A stretch of DNA of 64,000 nt from contig JALDYZ010000001.1 of assembly GCA_030028905.1 (NCBI GenBank), forward strand, positions 310,001-374,000, given 5' to 3'. The stretch comes from Ferirhizobium litorale (GTDB lineage Bacteria > Pseudomonadota > Alphaproteobacteria > Rhizobiales > Rhizobiaceae). Shown piece after piece: positions 10,978 to 62,032 of the stretch (position 1 is the stretch's first letter; each line of letters opens with the position of its first letter). Below the pieces are notes generated by a model, which was not told the DNA's origin, did no database searches, and was given only the letters and a program-made list of their open reading frames with translations. The position numbers and the translations under genes are program-made.

Positions 10978-12330
10978 ATGACACGTCGCTACTTTGGTAC
11001 GGACGGGATTCGGGGCAAGTCGAATATCTTTCCAATGACGCCTGACCTTGCCATGCGGGTCGGTATCGCCGTCGGCACGATCTTCCGGCGCGGCACGCAT
11101 CGCCATCGCGTCGTGATCGGCAAGGACACGCGCCTTTCCGGCTATATGCTGGAAAACGCCATGGTCGCGGGTTTCACCGCGGCCGGTGTCGACGCCTTCG
11201 TCCTCGGCCCGATCCCGACGCCGGCGGTGGCCATGCTTACCCGGTCGCTTCGCGCTGACATCGGCGTGATGATCTCGGCCTCGCACAACCCTTACGAAGA
11301 CAATGGTATCAAGCTCTTCGGACCGGATGGCTACAAGCTTTCCGACGAGCTCGAGCGGCAGATCGAAGAATTGCTCGAGCAGGACATCGGCAGCCAGCTC
11401 GCCAAATCCGATGACATCGGCCGTGCCAAGCGCATCGACGGCGTTCACGACCGCTATATCGAGCATGCCAAGCGCACGCTGCCGCGTGACGTGACGCTGA
11501 AGGGGCTGAGGGTCGCCATAGACTGTGCCAACGGCGCTGCCTACAAGGTGGCCCCCGCCGCTCTGTGGGAACTCGGCGCGGACGTCGTCACCATCGGCAA
11601 CGAGCCGAACGGCACCAACATCAATCTCGACTGCGGCTCGACCCATCCCTCAGCGTTGCAGAAGAAGGTCCATGAGGTGCGCGCCGACATCGGCATTGCG
11701 CTTGATGGCGATGCCGACCGCGTCATCATCGTCGACGAAACCGGCACGATTATCGACGGCGACCAGCTGATGGCGGTGATCGCCGAATCCTGGGCAAGCG
11801 ATCAGCTCTTGAAGGGCAATGGCATCGTCGCAACCGTCATGTCCAATCTCGGCCTCGAGCGATTCCTGGAAGACAAGGGGCTCAGCCTGGCGCGCACCAA
11901 GGTCGGCGACCGCTATGTCGTCGAGCACATGCGCCAGCACAATTTCAACGTCGGCGGCGAGCAGTCCGGCCACCTCGTGCTCTCCGATTTCGGCACCACC
12001 GGCGACGGCCTCGTCGCGGCAATGCAGATCCTCGCCTGCGTCAAGCGCACCGGCAGGACGGTGAGCGAAATCTGCCACCGCTTCGATCCGGTGCCGCAGT
12101 TGCTGCGCAACGTTCGTATCAGCGGCGGCAAGCCGCTGGAGGACAGTCGCGTGCAGCAGGCGATCGCCGACGCCGAAAGCGAACTTGCCCGCAAAGGCCG
12201 CCTGGTCATCCGTCCGTCCGGTACCGAGCCACTCATCCGGGTGATGGCGGAAGGCGACGATCGCGGCCAGATCGAGCGGATCGTCAACGATCTGGTCGGC
12301 GTGATCGGCGGCGCACGCGACGCGGCCTGA
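10978..12330 (+). CDS. glmM: Phosphoglucosamine mutase GlmM
   Basis: Cytoplasmic alpha-D-phosphohexomutase of 450 residues interconverting glucosamine-6-phosphate and glucosamine-1-phosphate for UDP-GlcNAc, hence wall and LPS. The N-terminus [14 protein letters not shown] and the phosphoserine loop [14 protein letters not shown] place the catalytic serine at S102, the same position as in E. coli GlmM. The metal loop DGDADR and phosphate-binding [12 protein letters not shown] are present. The gene stands alone between the ftsH terminator and a large hairpin. Confidence 0.97.
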
Positions 12331-12347: not shown

Positions 12348-12388
12348 GGCGACAACAAGCCGGTTGAAACGGCCGGCCTGTTGTCGCC
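12348..12388 (+). repeat. Long inverted repeat after glmM
   Basis: GGCGACAACA (12348-12357) pairs perfectly with TGTTGTCGCC (12379-12388). An inner GCCGG / CCGGC pair extends the stem across one mismatch. No T-run follows, so it may end or protect the glmM transcript without being a classical terminator. Confidence 0.5.
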
Positions 12389-12418: not shown

Positions 12419-12447
12419 GAAACTGTTACCGAATATGGTAAAGTTTC
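12419..12447 (+). promoter_or_regulatory. Inverted repeat upstream of first porin
   Basis: GAAACT-g-TTACC (12419-12430), spacer GAATAT, GGTAA-AGTTTC (12437-12447). The arms pair perfectly apart from one bulged G. It lies directly 5' of an exact CtrA box, so it may be a second operator or a leader hairpin. Confidence 0.45.
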
Positions 12448-12451
12448 ATGC

Positions 12452-12466
12452 TTAATCCGATGTTAA
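12452..12466 (+). promoter_or_regulatory. Exact CtrA box upstream of first porin
   Basis: TTAA (12452-12455), seven bases, TTAA (12463-12466). This is the full CtrA consensus TTAA-N7-TTAA and lies 87 bases before the ATG at 12553. CtrA is encoded at 59.7 kb. Confidence 0.6.
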
Positions 12467-12552
12467 CCCGCGGTTGCAATACTCCGGTCCGTTGGGGGTC
12501 GGGTGCTGTCGCGTGGGCATGCTCCGGGCCAAGGGCGTTCCTGGAGTATATT

Positions 12553-13323
12553 ATGAAGAAATTTCTGATGGCTGCTTCGGCGGCATTTCTGGCGTGCGGC
12601 CCGGTGATGGCTGCCGATCTCATTGTTGCTGATCCGGTTGTAGCCCCTGTCGTTGCGGCAGGCGGATGGTATCTGCGCGGCCACATCGGCATGAGCAACC
12701 AGCGCCTCGGTAGTCTGGAACACGAACGAATGAACATGGTCGAACTGCATGAGTTCGTCGATGACGGCAGTTTCGACAGTGCTCCGATCGGCGGCATTGG
12801 CATCGGCTACCAGTTCAATGACTGGCTGCGCACCGACGCCACCGTGGAATATCGTGGCAAGGCCGATTTCCAGGCGCTGGATCGCTATGGCCATACCGAA
12901 CCGGGTGGCGCAGTTTGGGACGGCACGAACGACTACGATGCGAGCAAGTCCGAGTGGCTGTTCATGACGAACGCCTATGTGGATCTTGGTGACTACTATG
13001 GCATCGTTCCCTATGTCGGCGCGGGTATCGGCGCCTCGCGCAACACCATCTCCGGCTTCCGCGACATCAACGTGCCGACGCAGGGCGTTGCCTATGCCGA
13101 CAGCGATTCCACCTGGAATTTCGCCTGGGCGCTGCATGCCGGCCTCGGCTACAAGGCCACCGATCGCCTCACCATCGATTTCGGCTACAGCTATGTCGAT
13201 CTCGGCGATGCCCAAACCGGCAACATCAAGACCTACGACAACTCGGTCACCAACAGCCCGATGAAGTTCAACGACATCACCTCGCACGACTTCAAGTTCG
13301 GCGTGCGCTACCTGTTGCAATAG
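12553..13323 (+). CDS. Outer-membrane beta-barrel porin, Omp25/RopB-like
   Basis: Secreted protein of 256 residues. The signal peptide MKKFLMAASAAFLACGPVMA justifies ATG 12553 over a more upstream start. The mature part has alternating amphipathic strands typical of the Omp25/Omp31/RopB family (GWYLRGHIGMSN, GGIGIGYQFNDWLRTDATVEY, PYVGAGIGAS, LTIDFGYSYVDLGDA) and ends in RYLLQ. It probably stabilises the outer membrane. Its promoter has an exact CtrA box and an inverted repeat. A related gene follows at 13514, suggesting tandem duplication. The exact family label is recalled, not searched. Confidence 0.85.
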   Translation: MKKFLMAASAAFLACGPVMAADLIVADPVVAPVVAAGGWYLRGHIGMSNQRLGSLEHERMNMVELHEFVDDGSFDSAPIGGIGIGYQFNDWLRTDATVEYRGKADFQALDRYGHTEPGGAVWDGTNDYDASKSEWLFMTNAYVDLGDYYGIVPYVGAGIGASRNTISGFRDINVPTQGVAYADSDSTWNFAWALHAGLGYKATDRLTIDFGYSYVDLGDAQTGNIKTYDNSVTNSPMKFNDITSHDFKFGVRYLLQ

Positions 13324-13357
13324 ATTTCCCCAGGCAGCGCATTGCGAAACCTTTCAG

Positions 13358-13379
13358 GGTCGCCTCCGGGCGGCCTTTT
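13358..13379 (+). terminator. Terminator after first porin
   Basis: Seven-bp stem GGTCGCC / GGCGGCC with one G-T pair (13358-13364, 13369-13375), four-base loop, then TTTT. Confidence 0.65.
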
Positions 13380-13426
13380 GCGTTGCATTCGTTAATTGCG
13401 CCACAGGGCCTGGTTAACAAACATGG

Positions 13427-13441
13427 TTAACCGGAGGTTAA
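13427..13441 (+). promoter_or_regulatory. Exact CtrA box upstream of second porin
   Basis: TTAA (13427-13430), CCGGAGG, TTAA (13438-13441), 73 bases before the ATG at 13514. A further GGTTAAC lies at 13412-13418, so three GTTAAC cores fall within 31 bases. Confidence 0.6.
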
Positions 13442-13513
13442 CCACTGCCCGCGATAATGGCCGCATGATGTGAAACATGCGGGCGAGGAATTGCCCGGTC
13501 AGGGGATTTTACA

Positions 13514-14335
13514 ATGACGTCGCGTGCCGTGTTCCTCGCCACCGCAGCCAGCCTCGCCCTTCTGGCCGGTAGTGCGGCAGCCGCCGACGAGGCACCGATC
13601 ACCGATGCGCCGGAGGTCACGATCTCGGGGGACCAGTCCTCGGGCAGTTGGTACCTGCGTGGCGATCTCGGCTATTCGCCATGGACCGGCGACGAGGATC
13701 CATCGTTCGACGCTTATGATGCAACAGGCAGCGAGATCGATAGCGGGGACTTCGATTCGGCGCGGTTCTCGAAACCGTTTTCCGGCGGCGTCGGCTTAGG
13801 CTATCAGTTCACCGACGTCTTTCGCGCCGATCTCACCACCGACTTTTTCAAGGGTGACTTCGACGGCGTTGCGCGCTCCGCTGCGCCCTGCTCATCGTCC
13901 GCCCCTGCCGGGACGGCTTGCAACTACAATTCGCGCGCCGATTTTCGTGCGTACGGGGTGATGGCGAACGGCTATGTCGATCTCGCCACCGTCGCCGGAT
14001 TTACGCCCTATCTCGGCGCCGGGTTGGGAGCGACCAACCTGCGATGGGACACGCTGAACGCCAGCGCAAACTGCGTTGACGGCGCTGCCTCCTGCGCCGG
14101 CGCGCCTTCAGACTCGGCGAGGTTTGGAGGCGACAGCAGTTGGCGTTTTACCTACGCGCTGATGGCCGGCGTCAGCTACGATGTCAGCGACCGGGTCAAG
14201 CTCGACCTCGGCTACCGCTTCTCCGATATTGCTGGTGGCAATATGTTCGGCTCGACGGGGGCAGGGCTCACGGGGCGCGATGACGGCCTCAGCCGGCACG
14301 AGTTCCGCGCCGGCCTGCGGATTGCCCTGTGGTAA
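13514..14335 (+). CDS. Outer-membrane beta-barrel protein, second porin-like gene
   Basis: Secreted protein of 273 residues with signal peptide MTSRAVFLATAASLALLAGSAAA. The mature region has porin-like strands (SGSWYLRGDLGYSPW, GGVGLGYQFTDVFRADLTTDF, YLGAGLGATNLRWDT, KLDLGYRFSDIAGG) and a C-terminal aromatic-rich strand ending LRIALW, as expected for BAM-dependent insertion. It resembles the gene at 12553 in the YLRG and GYQF blocks but is longer and has two Cys-Ala-rich loops (near CSSSAPAGTAC and CVDGAASC). A CtrA box lies upstream. Function beyond outer-membrane residence is not visible. Confidence 0.82.
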   Translation: MTSRAVFLATAASLALLAGSAAAADEAPITDAPEVTISGDQSSGSWYLRGDLGYSPWTGDEDPSFDAYDATGSEIDSGDFDSARFSKPFSGGVGLGYQFTDVFRADLTTDFFKGDFDGVARSAAPCSSSAPAGTACNYNSRADFRAYGVMANGYVDLATVAGFTPYLGAGLGATNLRWDTLNASANCVDGAASCAGAPSDSARFGGDSSWRFTYALMAGVSYDVSDRVKLDLGYRFSDIAGGNMFGSTGAGLTGRDDGLSRHEFRAGLRIALW

Positions 14336-14549: not shown

Positions 14550-15728
14550 ATGGTTGATACCGCCAAGCCGGCATTGCGTCCGGCCAACACCCATTTTTCT
14601 TCTGGCCCCTGCTCGAAGCGCCCCGGTTGGACGCTCGACGCTCTCTCTGACGCGGCCCTTGGCCGTTCGCACCGCGCCAAGGTCGGCAAGACCAAGCTCA
14701 AGCAGGCCATTGATCTTACCCGCGAAATTCTCGAGGTACCGGCCGACTACCGCATCGGCATCGTTCCGGCTTCCGATACCGGCGCCGTCGAAATGGCGCT
14801 CTGGTCGCTGCTCGGCGAGCGCGGTGTCGACATGGTTGCCTGGGAAAGCTTCGGTGCCGGCTGGGTCACCGACGTCGTCAAGCAGCTGAAGCTCAAGGAC
14901 GTCCGCAAACTCGAAGCCGGCTACGGCGAGTTGCCCGACCTTTCGACGATCGATTTCGACCGCGACGTGGTCTTTACCTGGAACGGCACCACCTCGGGCG
15001 TGCGCGTCCCGAACGCCGATTTCATCCCGGCGGACCGCAAGGGGCTGACGATATGCGACGCCACTTCGGCGGCTTTCGCTCAGGATCTCGATTTCGCCAA
15101 GCTCGACGTTGTCACCTTCTCCTGGCAGAAGGTGCTGGGCGGCGAGGGCGCCCATGGCGTCATCATCCTCAGCCCGCGCGCAGTGGAGCGTCTGATCAAC
15201 TACGTGCCGGCCTGGCCGCTGCCCAAGATCTTCCGCATGACCTCGGGCGGCAAGCTGATCGAAGGCATCTTTTCCGGCGAAACGATCAACACGCCGTCGA
15301 TGCTGTGCGTCGAGGATTACATCGATGCGCTCCTCTGGGCAAAAGAGGTCGGCGGTCTCAAGGGCCTGGTGGCGCGCGCCGACGCCAATGCCAAGGTCAT
15401 CTTCGACTTTGTGGCCGCGAATGGCTGGATCGCCAACCTGGCGGTCAAGGACGAGACACGTTCCAACACCTCCGTCTGCCTCAAGATCATCGACAAGGAC
15501 GTTGCCGCGCTCGACGCCGACGGCCAGGCGAATTTCGCCAAGGGCATCGCCAGCCTGCTCGACAAGGAAGGCGTTGCCTTCGACATCGGACACTATCGCG
15601 ATGCCCCGTCGGGCCTGCGCATCTGGGCAGGAGCCACAGTCGAGACGGCTGACATGGAAGCACTGATGCCATGGCTGACCTGGGCCTTCGAAACGCAGAA
15701 GGCGACGCTTTCTCAGGCTGCGGCCTGA
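14550..15728 (+). CDS. serC: Phosphoserine aminotransferase SerC
   Basis: PLP enzyme of 392 residues converting 3-phosphohydroxypyruvate and glutamate to phosphoserine in serine synthesis; it can also serve vitamin B6 synthesis. The PLP lysine is K194 in [14 protein letters not shown]. The N-terminus [15 protein letters not shown] is typical of the long alphaproteobacterial/archaeal SerC group. serA follows after 84 bases, giving two consecutive pathway steps in one transcription unit. Control by the upstream two-hairpin leader is inferred. Confidence 0.95.
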
Positions 15729-15812
15729 CGTGATCGCATAAGGCTCCGCCGATCGGCGGGGCCTAGCATTCCGAATTTCATTCCATCGTTGAACCCTTTG
15801 AAGGAGGCCATA

Positions 15813-17408
15813 ATGGCACCTCGCGTTCTCGTATCCGACGAATTGTCGGAAACCGCCGTCCAGATCTTCCGCGACCGCGGCGTCGAAGTCGATTTCCAGC
15901 CGAAACTCGGCAAGGACAAGGACAAGCTTGCCGAGATCATCGGCAACTATGACGGGCTTGCCATCCGCTCCGCCACCAAGGCGACCGAAAAACTGATCGC
16001 AGCCGCAACCAACCTCAAGGTGATCGGCCGCGCCGGCATCGGCGTCGACAATGTCGACATTCCGGCTGCCTCGCGCCGCGGCATCATCGTCATGAACACG
16101 CCGTTCGGCAACTCGATCACCACCGCCGAACATGCGATCGCGCTGCTCTTTGCCGTCGCGCGCCAGCTTCCTGCCGCCGACGTCTCCACCCAGGCCGGCA
16201 AATGGGAGAAGTCGAAGTTCATGGGCGTCGAGATCACCGGCAAGACGCTCGGCGTTATCGGTGCCGGCAACATCGGCGGCATCGTCTGCAAGAAGGCAAT
16301 CGGGCTCGGCATGCATGTTCTTGCCTATGATCCGTTCCTGTCGAAGGAGCGCGCCGAGGAGATGGGCGTCACCAAGGTCGAACTCGACGAACTCTTCGCC
16401 AAGGCCGACTTCATCACCCTGCATGTGCCGTTGACCGACAGGACCCGCAACATCATCGACGCGGAAGCGATCGCCAGGATGAAGGACGGCGTGCGGATCA
16501 TCAATTGCGCCCGCGGCGGCCTCGTCGTCGAGGCGGCGCTTGCCGAGGCCCTGAAGTCCGGCAAGGTCGCCGGTGCCGGCTTCGACGTGTTCGAGGTCGA
16601 GCCCGCCACGGAAAGCCCGCTGTTCGGCCTGCCGAACGTCGTCTGCACTCCGCATCTCGGCGCCTCGACCACGGAAGCACAGGAGAATGTCGCGCTGCAG
16701 GTCGCCGAGCAGATGTCGGACTACCTCGTCAAGGGGGCGGTCTCGAACGCCATCAACATGCCGTCGATCACCGCGGAGGAAGCCCCGCTCCTGAAACCGT
16801 TCATCCGGCTCGCTGACGTGCTCGGCGCCTTCGTCGGACAGGTCACTGAAAGCGCCATCAAGGAAATCGAGATTCTCTTTGATGGCGCGACCGCGACGAT
16901 GAACACCAAGGCGCTGACCAGCGCGCTGCTGGCCGGTCTGATCCGTCCGCAGGTCGCCGACGTCAACATGGTTTCGGCGCCGATCATGATCAAGGAAAAG
17001 GGGATCATCCTTTCCGAGGTCAAGCGCGACAAGTCCGGCGTCTATGACGGCTATATCAAGCTCACCGTCAAGACCGCTAATCAAACCCGTTCGGTTGCCG
17101 GTACAGTGTTCTCCGACGGCAAGCCGCGCTTCATCCAGATCAAGGGCATCAACATGGATGCCGACGTCGGGGCCAACATGATCTACATCGCCAATACCGA
17201 CGTACCGGGTATGATCGGCTTCATGGGAACGACGCTGGGCGAAGGCGGCGTGAACATCGCAAATTTCCAGCTCGGCCGCGACAAGCAGGGCGGCGATGCG
17301 ATCGCGCTGCTCTACGTCGACGAGCCAGTGAAGCAGGACGTGCTCGACAAGCTGACGGCCCATCCGGCGATCCGCCAGGCCAAGCCGCTGGTTTTCAATA
17401 TCGACTGA
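15813..17408 (+). CDS. serA: D-3-phosphoglycerate dehydrogenase SerA
   Basis: NAD-dependent first enzyme of serine synthesis, 531 residues, the long form with catalytic, ASB and C-terminal ACT domains. The Rossmann motif is GVIGAGNIGG, catalytic-region motifs are NCARGGLVVE and PHLGAS, and the ACT domain begins near ANMIYIANTDVPGMIG. ATG 15813 follows AAGGAGG at optimal spacing; an in-frame start 24 bases upstream lacks a ribosome site. ACT-mediated feedback by L-serine is plausible but not shown. Confidence 0.97.
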   Translation: MAPRVLVSDELSETAVQIFRDRGVEVDFQPKLGKDKDKLAEIIGNYDGLAIRSATKATEKLIAAATNLKVIGRAGIGVDNVDIPAASRRGIIVMNTPFGNSITTAEHAIALLFAVARQLPAADVSTQAGKWEKSKFMGVEITGKTLGVIGAGNIGGIVCKKAIGLGMHVLAYDPFLSKERAEEMGVTKVELDELFAKADFITLHVPLTDRTRNIIDAEAIARMKDGVRIINCARGGLVVEAALAEALKSGKVAGAGFDVFEVEPATESPLFGLPNVVCTPHLGASTTEAQENVALQVAEQMSDYLVKGAVSNAINMPSITAEEAPLLKPFIRLADVLGAFVGQVTESAIKEIEILFDGATATMNTKALTSALLAGLIRPQVADVNMVSAPIMIKEKGIILSEVKRDKSGVYDGYIKLTVKTANQTRSVAGTVFSDGKPRFIQIKGINMDADVGANMIYIANTDVPGMIGFMGTTLGEGGVNIANFQLGRDKQGGDAIALLYVDEPVKQDVLDKLTAHPAIRQAKPLVFNID

Positions 17409-40437: not shown

Positions 40438-40497
40438 CGCGCGAACGCGATCTCAACCCTCCGTTAACCAAGAAAAACTAAATTCGCTCTGAATGCC

Positions 40498-40539: not shown

Positions 40540-42192
40540 ATGAGCTGGCTCGGAAGCAACACGAAAGCTGCGGAAGCGACCGACTTGCCGGCCCCGGGCG
40601 AGCCGAAGCCGGTGGCAGCGGTTCGCCGCGGGCCGGTCGTTCGCACCGCGGACTACATCACCCGCCGCGTGCCGGAGGTTCCGCCGGAACCGGTGGTCGT
40701 CTCCGACCCCAAGCCGGTTGTCCACGACGAGCAGATCAAGGCTCACGTGGTGGTCGAGCCTGTTTCGCCATCCGTTTCTGGAACCGAACCGGAAAAGCCG
40801 CCGGAAATTGCCGGAGCCGACATTCCGCTGTTCGATCTCGCCTCCATTGCGCGGGCCACATGGACCTACCGGCGGCCGATCCTCGGCCTGGCGGTTGCCG
40901 GCGCGCTGCTCGGCGGCGGCCTGATGGCGATGTCTGCGCGCAAATATACTGCCGAGACCAGCCTCTATTTCGATCCGCGCCAGGTGCAGATCACCCGTTC
41001 CGCCGAAGGTGGAGAAAGTGCGTCGCCCACCGCCGTCACGGCGATCATCGACAGCCAGGCGCGCATCCTCACCTCGAACCGCGTGCTCGAACGCGTAGCC
41101 GAGAAGCTCGAACTTGCCAAGGACCCAGATTTTGCGGTGAAGGCAGCCGGGACGGACGGCGTGCCCTACGGGCTCGTGGCCAGGCTGCAGCAGTCAACGT
41201 CGATCACGCGCGACGACAACACCTATATCGTTTCCCTCAAGGTCACGACCGGCGACGGCGCCAAGTCCGCCGGCATCGCCAATGCCATCGTCGATGCCTA
41301 TCTCGAGGAGGAAAACCAGGCGGTTTCCGGCATCTATCGCAGCGCGAACAGCGCGCTCGACGGACGACTTGCCGAGCTTGGCGCCAAGGTGCAGGCCGCC
41401 GAAAAGGCGGTCGAGGATTTCCGCGCCAGGAACGACATGGTCACCGCCGAAGGCGACCTTATCTCCGACAAGCGGCTGGTCTCTCTGAATGAACTGCTGG
41501 TCACGGCCCAGAACCGGACGATCGAGGCGAAGGCAAAGGTCACGGCCGCAAGCAACTTGAAGGTCGAGGATGCGCTGGCCGGAAATTCGGCGAATAGCGT
41601 GGCTTCGGCGACGCTCGTCGACTTGCGACGGCAGTACGCCGCCCAGGCCGCCAGCATCGGCAGCATGGAAAGCCGCATGGGTCCGCGCCACCCGTCGCTG
41701 CTGGCCGCAAAGGGATCGCTCGAAGGGCTGAAGGCGGAAATCCGCAACGAATTGCAACGGATCGTTTCCGTCGCGGAATCCGAGCAGGCGCAGGCGCAGA
41801 AGGCCGAAGAGGACGTTGCGAAGGAACTGACCATCCAGAAGGCGCTGCAAGCCAATACTTCGATGCAGCAGATCGACCTCAATGAACTGCAGCGCGAGGC
41901 CACCGCCGCCCGCGACATCTACGAAACGGTGCTGAAGCGCGCCCGCGAAACGAGTGAGGACCTGAACCTCGTGCGCAGCAACGTCCGCGTCATCTCCAAG
42001 GCAGAAATGCCCCTGAAGGCCGACGGGCCGGGGACCAAGATGCGGCTGATCGCCGGTATTCTCGGTGGCCTGATCCTCGGGTTGGCACTCGGCATCGGGC
42101 TTGCGGTCCTCCGCAGCCTGCTGGTGCACCCTTTTATCCGCTCCGCATTTCGCGAGTTTTCCGCCAGCACAGAGAACCCGAAGGCGTCTTGA
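40540..42192 (+). CDS. Wzz/GumC-like polysaccharide chain-length protein
   Basis: 550 residues. A cytoplasmic N-terminal tail of about 105 residues is Pro/Val-rich. Helix 1 lies near 113-131 ([19 protein letters not shown]), followed by the Wzz domain with [15 protein letters not shown], a long coiled-coil periplasmic region, and helix 2 near 506-525 ([21 protein letters not shown]). There is no C-terminal tyrosine kinase, so it is a co-polymerase without BY-kinase. It ends the 36.9-42.2 kb polysaccharide cluster. An export lipoprotein gene appears at 62.8 kb. Confidence 0.88.
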
Positions 42193-58332: not shown

Positions 58333-58434
58333 CCAAATATGTTGTCTTTATGGCGCACGGCGCGAGCCCATCCTCGCGCAATATTCATATGCCAAGGTCC
58401 ATGAATCGCGACCCTTGCCCCCCAGGAGAACATG

Positions 58435-59103
58435 ATGTCCAAAAATCCGAACCTCACCCTGACTGGACCGGATCTGGCCGCCCTTTTGTGCAGCCGCGTT
58501 TGCCATGACGTCATTTCGCCTGTCGGGGCAATCAACAACGGACTGGAACTCCTTGACGAGGGCGGCGCCGATGCCGATGCGATGGACCTGATCCGCGCCA
58601 GCGCGCTGAACGCTTCGGTGCGGCTGAAGTTTGCCCGCCTGGCATTCGGTGCCTCCGGTTCGGTCGGTGCGTCGATCGACACGGGTGAGGCCGAGAAGGC
58701 CGCCAAGGATTTCGCTGCCGCCGAAAAGAAGACGGAAGTGACCTGGAACGGTCCCCGGGCGATCATCGCCAAGAACCGCGTGAAGCTGCTGCTGAACCTC
58801 TTCCTTGTCGCATATGGCTCGATCCCGCGCGGCGGTTCGCTGGAGATCACGCTCGAGAATCCGGAAGTCGATGCGCGCTTCACCATCGTTGCGAAGGGCC
58901 GGATGATGCGCGTCCCGTCGAAGTTCGCGGAAATCTGCAACGGCGAGCTGGAAGAGGCGGTCGACGCGCATTCGATCCAGCCCTACTACACCGTGCTTAT
59001 GGCCCAGGAGAGCGGCATGGAGATCCGCTACACCTCCAGCGGCGACGATATCGTATTCACCGCGGAAATGGCCGTGGCCGCACAAAAATCGGCAGCGCTT
59101 TAA
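58435..59103 (+). CDS. chpT: Histidine phosphotransferase ChpT
   Basis: 222 residues. The phospho-accepting helix is CSRVCHDVISPVGAINNGLELL with H24. A degenerate HATPase-like C-terminal domain without ATP-binding G-boxes follows. ChpT relays phosphate from CckA to CtrA and CpdR. The second of two tandem ATGs (58432, 58435) has better spacing from AGGAG. A single-domain response regulator gene follows 100 bases downstream, and ctrA is convergent beyond it. Confidence 0.93.
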   Translation: MSKNPNLTLTGPDLAALLCSRVCHDVISPVGAINNGLELLDEGGADADAMDLIRASALNASVRLKFARLAFGASGSVGASIDTGEAEKAAKDFAAAEKKTEVTWNGPRAIIAKNRVKLLLNLFLVAYGSIPRGGSLEITLENPEVDARFTIVAKGRMMRVPSKFAEICNGELEEAVDAHSIQPYYTVLMAQESGMEIRYTSSGDDIVFTAEMAVAAQKSAAL

Positions 59104-59738: not shown

Positions 59739-60440
59739 CTAGGCGGTTTCCATCAGTTCGTTGTTGTCCGGCTCGCGCAGCACGTAGCCGCGACCCCAGA
59801 CGGTTTCGATGTAGTTGGCGCCACCGGCGGCGTTGGCAAGTTTCTTGCGAAGCTTGCAGATGAAGACGTCGATGATCTTCAGTTCCGGCTCGTCCATGCC
59901 GCCATAAAGGTGGTTGAGGAACATTTCCTTAGTCAGCGTCGTGCCCTTGCGCAGCGAGAGCAGTTCCAGCATCTGGTATTCCTTGCCGGTCAGATGCACG
60001 CGCTGGCCGCCGACTTCCACCGTCTTCGCGTCGAGGTTGACGATCAGCTCGCCGGTCATGATGACCGATTGGGCGTGACCCTTCGAACGACGGACAATGG
60101 CGTGGATACGGGCGACGAGCTCATCCTTGTGGAAGGGCTTGGTCATGTAGTCGTCCGCACCGAAGCCGAGGCCGCGCACCTTGTCCTCGATTCCGGCCAT
60201 GCCGGAGAGGATCAGGATCGGCGTCTTCACCTTGGAAAGGCGAAGCGTCCTCAGCACTTCATAGCCCGACATGTCGGGCAGGTTCAGATCGAGCAGAATG
60301 ATGTCGTAATCATAAAGCTTGCCCAGATCGACGCCTTCTTCACCGAGATCGGTCGTGTAAACGTTGAAGCTTTCCGATTTGAGCATCAGTTCGATGCTCT
60401 GCGCTGTCGCGCTGTCATCTTCGATGAGTAGAACCCGCAT
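59739..60440 (-). CDS. ctrA: Cell-cycle master response regulator CtrA
   Basis: OmpR-type regulator of 233 residues. The receiver domain begins [20 protein letters not shown] with phospho-acceptor D51 in [18 protein letters not shown]. The DNA-binding domain has [29 protein letters not shown] and [13 protein letters not shown], which are nearly invariant in alphaproteobacterial CtrA. It binds TTAA-N7-TTAA and controls division, motility and replication genes. Its own promoter carries a near-consensus box and a cluster of GANTC sites. Confidence 0.98.
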
Positions 60441-60884
60441 TCTTGTCCCCTTTTCCGCCGCCGAAAGGTTGTCCTGGCCCCCTACGCGATACGGATCCAG
60501 TTGTTGCCTGATTTGGAAGCTGCCACCATTTGGTTAACAAATTCTTATTGCCTCTGGCAAGATGTATAGAATTTATTAAATAATTTTGGCACTCCGCTGA
60601 TTTTACAAATGAATCGAGAACCAAGGATTCTCAGCTTTCACATTAAGAAACTGTGGTAAGCGATTCATTCGACTCACCATTGCGGCTAGCTCGTTTTTGG
60701 CCTCCGCCATTTACCGACCCTTAAAAGATCGGCCCTATGATTAACGATGCCCGTAAATGAAAGGTTACCAGCGGTAGGTTTTCGTTAACGCCGCCGGAGT
60801 TTTTTTTGGTGCGGGGGAATCACCTCGGCCAAAGCGGGCAAATCTGAAGTGTGGCCGGGGTCTCGTATCACGGGAGTATTGCGT
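60441..60884. promoter_or_regulatory. Control region between ctrA and fliJ
   Basis: A 444-base divergent region. TTAA-N7-TTAT (60534-60548) lies 94 bases upstream of ctrA. GANTC sites fall at 60611-60615, 60626-60630, 60662-60666 and 60671-60675. TTTA-N7-TTAA (60710-60724) lies on the fliJ side. An AT-rich palindromic stretch runs from about 60570 to 60590. No gene is supported here. Methylation- and CtrA-dependent control of ctrA is inferred from Caulobacter. Confidence 0.6.
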
Positions 60885-62017: not shown

Positions 62018-62032
62018 TTAAAAATTGACTAA
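62018..62032 (-). promoter_or_regulatory. One-mismatch CtrA box upstream of sciP
   Basis: Plus strand TTAA (62018-62021), seven bases, CTAA (62029-62032); read on the minus strand TTAG-N7-TTAA. It lies 54-68 bases upstream of the sciP start. Confidence 0.45.

What the first reader, a model, noticed from the sequence alone, without database searches (positions are those of the whole stretch)
12452..13441. Both porin genes carry exact CtrA boxes
TTAA-N7-TTAA occurs exactly at 12452-12466 and 13427-13441, 87 and 73 bases before the two outer-membrane barrel genes, and the window encodes CtrA, ChpT and SciP. In Brucella, CtrA is known to control outer-membrane protein composition including Omp25. 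Here the link would cover a tandem pair.
Basis: partly seen in the sequence, partly recalled or inferred. Interest (0 to 1): 0.7.

Follow-up and report, generated by a model that had tools for sequence, protein, structure and literature searches.

The report
Conserved CtrA-type switch on barrel genes

Summary
The boxes are real (12452-12466, 13427-13441) and conserved. Of 80 named loci chosen by protein similarity, 80 have an exact TTAA-N7-TTAA within 300 nt of the first gene's estimated start. The 300-nt stretches before barrel genes in these loci hold 109 boxes; all other intergenic DNA there (72,226 nt) holds 4. The box keeps a fixed frame to a -10-like hexamer, which puts it over the -35. 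A third TTAA often lies 9 nt away: exact in gene 2 (13414-13441), TAAA in gene 1 (12439). Weaker boxes in the window precede ctrA, sciP and eipA, and exact boxes elsewhere precede flagellin, chemoreceptor and minC genes, all reported CtrA targets in relatives. CtrA binding is therefore likely, but neither occupancy nor expression was measured. Corrections: these are small barrels, read as eight strands, not porins, and the genome's two other PF13505 genes lack the box. Most homologues have Ala-Asp after a signal-peptide-like start, the end reported to tether some barrels to peptidoglycan. Verdict: observation confirmed, CtrA reading likely; I found no report of the third half-site.

The parts
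12452..12466 (+). exact CtrA-type box TTAA-N7-TTAA before gene 1
   Evidence: 80 of 80 named orthologous loci have an exact box within 300 nt of the estimated start
12439..12442 (+). degenerate third half-site TAAA, 9 nt upstream of the gene 1 box
   Evidence: 1-mismatch array 12439-12466; distal site with at most 1 mismatch in 90 of 102 aligned gene-1-class promoters
12478..12483 (+). -10-like hexamer AATACT, starting 15 nt after the start of the proximal TTAA
   Evidence: A and T at the two key positions in 90 of 102 gene-1-class promoters; prediction only
12348..12388 (+). stem-loop (16-nt arms) between glmM and gene 1
   Evidence: function not tested
12553..13323 (+). gene 1, outer-membrane beta-barrel (PF13505), 256 aa
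13414..13441 (+). exact three-site array TTAA-N9-TTAA-N7-TTAA before gene 2, the only exact copy found in the 5.245 Mb genome
13427..13441 (+). exact CtrA-type box TTAA-N7-TTAA before gene 2
13453..13458 (+). -10-like hexamer GATAAT, starting 15 nt after the start of the proximal TTAA
   Evidence: A and T in 79 of 97 gene-2-class promoters; prediction only
13514..14335 (+). gene 2, outer-membrane beta-barrel (PF13505), 273 aa
8682..10742 (+). ftsH, conserved neighbour
10978..12330 (+). glmM, conserved neighbour directly upstream
14550..15728 (+). serC, conserved neighbour downstream (name recalled from its place; only a sub-threshold class-V aminotransferase match)
15789..17408 (+). serA, conserved neighbour downstream
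59739..60440 (-). ctrA, the predicted regulator
58432..59103 (+). chpT
   Evidence: PF10090
61689..61982 (-). sciP (DUF1153; the name is recalled)
   Evidence: PF06627
57656..58246 (-). eipA
   Evidence: PF06577
58318..58332 (.). 1-mismatch box between eipA and chpT
60534..60548 (.). 1-mismatch box 94 nt before ctrA
60710..60724 (.). 1-mismatch box 270 nt before ctrA
62018..62032 (.). 1-mismatch box 36 nt before sciP

Best explanation
Each of the two tandem barrel genes has an exact TTAA-N7-TTAA box in the same frame to a predicted -10 hexamer, and the cell-cycle regulator CtrA would likely bind that box over the -35 and switch the genes on at its point in the cell cycle, with a third TTAA-like site nine bases away predicted to tune the response. 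Shown here: the boxes, their frame to the -10-like hexamer, the third half-site, and the wide conservation of the box (and, in most promoters, of the frame and the third site) at a syntenic locus. Inferred: that CtrA is the binder, that the effect on the window's genes is activation, and that the third site adds a cooperating or competing CtrA. Also inferred: that the products, expected to begin Ala-Asp after signal-peptide removal, are attached to peptidoglycan, so that CtrA would time the supply of envelope tethers alongside new-pole and septal growth.
For: Exact boxes. 80 of 80 named loci have the box; 193 of 206 distinct barrel-gene upstreams have it, against a shuffle mean of 1.05 and a maximum of 3 in 20 shuffles. 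Among spacings 3-20, only N7 (193), N9 (132) and N20 (129, the outer pair of the triple) stand out; the next highest is 17. 109 boxes in the 300-nt stretches before barrel genes (33,743 nt) against 4 in the other 630,420 nt of the same loci, all 4 of them in the 72,226 nt of other intergenic DNA. -10 frame in 90 of 102 and 79 of 97 promoters. In the window, 6 of 8 matches with at most one mismatch precede the barrel pair, eipA/chpT, ctrA (two) or sciP; 2.4 matches are expected by chance. Seven of the 25 own-genome exact boxes precede two flagellins (three), an MCP, MinC and a Rem-like regulator (two); fla, mcp, minCD and sciP are direct CtrA targets in S. meliloti (PMC4433202 section 9). TTAA-N7-TTAAC is the ChIP-seq motif of CtrA in a stalked budding alphaproteobacterium (PMC7200025 passage). 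Most CtrA-activated Caulobacter promoters have the site at -35 (PMC11264516, abstract start, passages).
Against: No occupancy or expression data. The bare pattern is not enriched genome-wide (25 against 29 for the control), and 16 of the 25 own-genome boxes lie near genes without a CtrA link known to me, among them a prophage terminase, an integrase and an MFS gene. The three-site array is nearly private to these genes: of the 25 boxes only 5 have a TTAA with at most 1 mismatch at N9 on either side, two of them the barrel pair. That could mean a second, dedicated factor. A Rem-like gene carries such an array, yet S. meliloti rem was neither bound nor changed in the CtrA data. The main text of the S. 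meliloti CtrA paper has 0 occurrences of 'outer membrane' or 'porin', though it names cell-envelope components among the direct targets; its supplementary target list could not be read. The comparative CtrA survey PMC2877005 has 0 occurrences of 'outer membrane' in its main text. The absence of a sigma-70 -35/-10 pair (0 found, 0.5 expected) carries little weight.
Confidence: 0.72

Rival explanations
1. Another OmpR-type or envelope regulator (CenR, ChvI/BvrR, or an unnamed one) binds the TTAA array, and CtrA does not.
For: The three-site array is almost private to these genes, and envelope genes are known targets of CenR and BvrR.
Against: The published CenR motif TGA-N8-TGA is in only 5 of 206 barrel upstreams (150 nt), against 11 on average in mononucleotide shuffles, and in neither window promoter. 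Only the TTAA array and the -10 stand out in the column profile. TTAA-N7-TTAA or a 1-mismatch form also marks ctrA, sciP, flagellin and minC genes here. A ChvI/BvrR box was not tested.
Confidence: 0.17
2. MucR, the H-NS-like silencer, covers these promoters, and the TTAA steps are its TA-rich contacts.
For: MucR peaks overlap CtrA sites in Brucella and include omp25d and omp31b (PMC10746212 passages).
Against: The MucR regions mapped there are 141-217 nt and 74-83% AT; here the 150 nt upstream are 45% AT in both window promoters and 48% on average over 206 genes. Exact 7- and 9-nt spacings are not what a degenerate AT reader needs. MucR could still act as a second layer.
Confidence: 0.05
3. 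The box is only a constraint of the core promoter (an unusual -35) without a specific regulator.
For: It overlaps the predicted -35 region in a fixed frame.
Against: Two exact half-sites plus, in most promoters, a third at N9 outside the core promoter are kept while flanking columns vary; core promoters do not need this.
Confidence: 0.05

Closest known systems
CtrA-activated promoters with one TTAA-N7-TTAA at the -35 (Caulobacter; S. meliloti fla, mcp, sciP as direct targets)
   Same: Same box, predicted same place relative to the -10, CtrA, ChpT and SciP genes present.
   Different: A third half-site at N9 in most, and a frame to the -10 kept in 90 of 102 and 79 of 97 promoters; the target is a barrel gene that follows glmM.
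Caulobacter pilA promoter with extra upstream CtrA sites (PMC11264516)
   Same: A -35 box plus further CtrA-type half-sites upstream; there the extra sites tune timing and sensitivity to CtrA level.
   Different: In pilA the further sites lie 31, 3 and 78 nt from their neighbours, deviate from consensus, and sites 2 and 3 have 6-nt spacing; here the third half-site adjoins the box at 9 nt and is widely conserved.
CtrA control of outer-membrane proteins in Brucella abortus (Francis et al. 2017; not read, cited through PMC10538546 and PMC10787603 passages)
   Same: CtrA linked to the make-up of the outer membrane.
   Different: The omp25 site lies at -389 to -337, far from the start; the window genes may be a different PF13505 subgroup.
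Peptidoglycan-tethered barrels (Brucella Omp25, Agrobacterium AopA1/AopA2/AopB)
   Same: Small barrel with an unstructured N-terminal tail and Ala-Asp at the expected mature end.
   Different: Tethering of the window's proteins is untested.
Rickettsia adhesin Adr (NF052636)
   Same: Best NCBIfam match of both proteins (68.4 and 69.9 bits).
   Different: Far below the family cut-off of 210 bits.

Membership tests
CtrA-regulated promoter | TTAA-N7-TTAA(C) box | tested here: met
CtrA-regulated promoter | box overlaps the -35 of a recognisable promoter | tested here: met
   fixed frame to a NATNNT hexamer; in silico only, transcription start not known
CtrA-regulated promoter | CtrA and its phosphorelay partner present | tested here: met
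CtrA-regulated promoter | box conserved where the gene is conserved | tested here: met
   80 of 80 named loci; 193 of 206 distinct upstreams
CtrA-regulated promoter | CtrA occupies the site and expression depends on it | not testable with these tools
   needs ChIP-seq and depletion
General (16-strand trimeric) porin | 16-strand barrel | tested here: not met
   model of gene 1's product, pLDDT 89.2, read as eight barrel strands; best folds Legionella porin III, OmpA, NspA, OmpW; gene 2's product was not modelled
Omp25/Omp31 family of Brucella | sequence grouping with Omp25/Omp31 | tested here: inconclusive
   Omp25 itself was not compared; gene 1's product is nearly unalignable with one other PF13505 protein of this genome and did not find either of the other two at E 1e-3
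Peptidoglycan-tethered barrel | mature N-terminus Ala-Asp | tested here: inconclusive
   A21-D22 invariant in 32 sequences; AAD in 168, AD in 18 and neither in 20 of 206 between residues 13 and 40; no signal-peptide predictor was run
Peptidoglycan-tethered barrel | covalent link to peptidoglycan | not testable with these tools
   needs sacculus proteomics
CenR target | TGA-N8-TGA | tested here: not met
   5 of 206 upstreams, neither window promoter
MucR-silenced region | long, very AT-rich binding region | tested here: not met
   45% AT in both window promoters against 74-83%
ChvI/BvrR target | ChvI/BvrR box | not tested
   no motif was scanned

The most novel reading that the evidence does not exclude
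TTAA-N9-TTAA-N7-TTAA is a distinct class of CtrA operator, kept across the order for one purpose: to tie the supply of peptidoglycan-tethering barrels to the polar-growth cell cycle. In Mesorhizobium- and Aminobacter-type genomes the second gene's array is flipped so that the third site falls on the -10, which would make the twin genes take turns: one switched on by CtrA, the other shut off.
Probability: 0.28. Interest if true: 0.8.

Novelty: new variant of a known kind. Interest (0 to 1): 0.62.

Why it matters
Direct CtrA targets are reported to differ between Caulobacter and S. meliloti (abstract of PMC4433202). A box found in 80 of 80 named loci would be an unusually stable CtrA link, and it points at the outer membrane rather than at motility or division. 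It could explain how polar-growing bacteria time the supply of outer-membrane tethers. It also offers a promoter in which the role of a third CtrA half-site can be tested by changing a few bases in a harmless rhizobium.

Tried and rejected
Genome-wide enrichment of the bare pattern: none (25 against 29 for the control). The argument therefore rests on position and conservation. Of the 25 boxes, 2 precede the barrel pair, 7 precede flagellin, MCP, MinC or Rem-like genes, and 16 lie near other genes.

CenR and MucR as binder: motif and base composition do not fit. GANTC (CcrM) sites near the two promoters: none. The ChvI/BvrR box was not tested with a motif of its own.

Wider spread: in the class search 33 of 142 genomes matched, two of them from the order (the own genome and G244). 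Loci of 29 of the 32 others were examined (L205-L233). The one from the order (L205) has the box before the match; none of the 28 from other orders does. Boxes found in three of them (GC 0.29-0.45) lie after the match start.

Tri-array hits not at barrel genes: 56 of 100 in 61 genomes; 'at' means at most 400 nt upstream of, or overlapping by up to 50 nt, a protein match, of which I left out two fragments of one gene already entered. Of the 56, 36 lie in eight of nine genomes that I set aside by eye as AT-rich or reduced, and 20 in the others. I looked at five of the 20: two Rem-like regulators (L186, L187), one locus between a small ORF and a sigma-54 activator (L195), one behind glmM with an ORF without a Pfam match (L174), and one (L184) with a lytic transglycolase about 800 nt away. 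L173 and L199 were not scanned for families; the rest were not examined.

Start codons: for the 80 named loci the start was estimated from the match; for L077-L111 I entered one rough offset for all, so the 300-nt count is generous for some of them. An earlier count with a narrower interval gave 73 of 80, and in the other seven the box was then seen by eye or.

Rows dropped: one search collected 218 genes (some loci overlap); 2 had under 200 nt upstream, and 203 of the other 216 have the box within 250 nt. One search merged identical ones to 208; 206 had enough upstream and 193 of these have the box. One search used 199 of the 206 (102 + 97), because 7 had no anchor box or too little flank. 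Thirteen of 206 upstreams lack an exact box; five gene-2 cases printed show TTAA-N9-TTAA-N7-TTAG instead, and at least one gene-1 case (L086) was a wrongly placed start.

Literature: ten searches. The listings and passages I saw do not describe this array or this locus; most subscription papers are not held and supplementary tables could not be read. Papers: PMC4433202 section 9 and passages; PMC9275681, PMC10746171, PMC10538546, PMC10787603, PMC10746212, PMC11264516, PMC11527210, PMC12729407, PMC12274547, PMC2877005 and PMC7200025 passages only; the rest search listings. Recalled, from no call: the names serC, Rem and SciP for the window's or genome's proteins, the order name Hyphomicrobiales for the named genera taken together, and that bacterial -10 hexamers keep A at 2 and T at 6.

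Full report
What was checked. The window holds exactly two TTAA-N7-TTAA sites, at the stated places; 0 of 100 shuffles reach two. Both precede genes for PF13505 barrels. The whole genome (5.245 Mb, 66 contigs) holds 25 such sites against 29 for the AATT control, so the pattern by itself proves little.

Conservation. A scan of named genomes with an alignment of the protein (593 stretches matched, 531 encode a relative, the best 80 kept by protein similarity) gave loci from Sinorhizobium, Ensifer, Rhizobium, Ciceribacter, Neorhizobium, Phyllobacterium, Aminobacter, Mesorhizobium, Kaistia, Chelatococcus, Rhodopseudomonas, Afipia, Bradyrhizobium and others, some of them metagenome-assembled. All 80 have the exact box within 300 nt upstream of the estimated start; 55 have the exact triple TTAA-N9-TTAA-N7-TTAA, and 75 have it with at most one mismatch in the distal TTAA. 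In these loci the 300-nt stretches before 113 barrel genes (33,743 nt) hold 109 boxes and the other 630,420 nt hold 4, all 4 in intergenic DNA, of which there are 72,226 nt by a simple gene caller. Over 206 distinct barrel genes with enough upstream DNA, 193 have the box within 250 nt (shuffle mean 1.05, maximum 3 in 20). The spacing spectrum peaks only at 7 (193), 9 (132) and 20 (129), the last being the outer pair of the triple. The two classes in these counts are defined by which window protein a gene resembles more.

Promoter anatomy. With the box as anchor, the only other strong columns are a -10-like NATNNT and the distal TTAA. A and T of the -10 are both in place, 16 and 20 nt after the start of the proximal TTAA, in 90 of 102 gene-1-class and 79 of 97 gene-2-class promoters. 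The distal TTAA (at most one mismatch) is at N9 in 90 of 102 and 62 of 97. At other distal offsets the gene-1 class has at most 28, except 44 of 102 one 13-nt step further out, and the gene-2 class at most 14. The window's promoters fit: box, then AATACT at 12478 and GATAAT at 13453. The box would thus cover the -35. In 28 of 97 gene-2-class promoters a TTAA lies at N9 on the other side and overlaps the -10; in gene-1-class promoters this is so in 3 of 102.

Specificity. In the window's genome the exact triple occurs once, at gene 2; with up to one mismatch there are 11 matches in all, both barrel genes among them. Over 61 genomes the exact triple occurs 100 times, in 50 of them; 44 copies lie close before a barrel gene found, in 35 genomes. 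The other 56 are described under tried and rejected. The two other PF13505 genes of the window's genome have no box in their loci.

Locus. Among six genes searched for in the 80 loci, glmM comes directly before the barrel gene in 70 and serC follows in 64, with ftsH and serA further out where the 4-kb flank or the contig reaches. At least 33 of the 80 loci have two or more barrel genes. Outside the order, relatives are weak and have no box before the match.

Why CtrA. In the same window, six of the eight sites with at most one mismatch (2.4 expected) lie before the barrel pair, eipA/chpT, ctrA (two) and sciP. CtrA control of eipA is reported in a Brucella review (PMC10787603 passage), binding at the ctrA promoters in S. 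meliloti (PMC4433202 passage) and control of sciP there (section 9). Exact boxes elsewhere lie before two flagellins (three boxes), an MCP, MinC and a Rem-like regulator (two boxes); fla, mcp and minCD are direct CtrA targets in S. meliloti. Against: rem itself was not bound there, 16 of the 25 own-genome boxes have no such link, and the array is nearly private to the barrel genes, so another factor may share it.

The products. The model of gene 1's product reads as an eight-strand barrel, with no secondary structure at residues 20-37 and low confidence at 22-30; its nearest folds are Legionella porin III, OmpA, NspA and OmpW. Ala-Asp follows a signal-peptide-like start: invariant in 32 aligned homologues, AAD in 168 and AD in 18 of 206; no signal-peptide predictor was run. 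Papers report that some alpha- and gammaproteobacterial barrels are linked to peptidoglycan by an N-terminal Ala or Gly (PMC12274547 passage) and that Agrobacterium tethers AopA1, AopA2 and AopB (PMC11527210 passage). Tethering of the window's proteins is inference.

Verdict. CtrA control is likely (0.72) but unmeasured. The extra half-site, the fixed frame and the wide conservation make it a new variant of a known kind of promoter, as far as the ten listed searches show.

Noticed in passing
window 40453-40467: A 1-mismatch box lies 73 nt before a Wzz/GNVR chain-length gene (40540-42192), a possible further CtrA target in a polysaccharide cluster.
   Followed up: partly
L143, L144 (2 boxes), L145, L147, L160 (own genome): Exact boxes also lie near genes for DUF1465 (two boxes), a FeeM-type acyl synthase, a BTLCP protease, a DUF2336 protein and FtsK.
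   Followed up: partly
L186 1501, L187 1501, L195 1501: The three-site array also precedes Rem-like regulators in two other genera and lies between a small ORF and a sigma-54 activator in a third.
   Followed up: partly
window 13424-13444: The gene 2 box lies in a perfect inverted repeat, TGGTTAACC-N3-GGTTAACCA.
   Followed up: no
window 12348-12388: A stem-loop with 16-nt arms separates glmM from the array; it may end the glmM transcript, though the terminator scan did not list it.
   Followed up: no
gene-2-class promoters, e.g. L050, L056, L060: Third TTAA on the downstream side, overlapping the -10, in 28 of 97 promoters, which suggests opposite control of the twin genes in those lineages.
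   Followed up: partly
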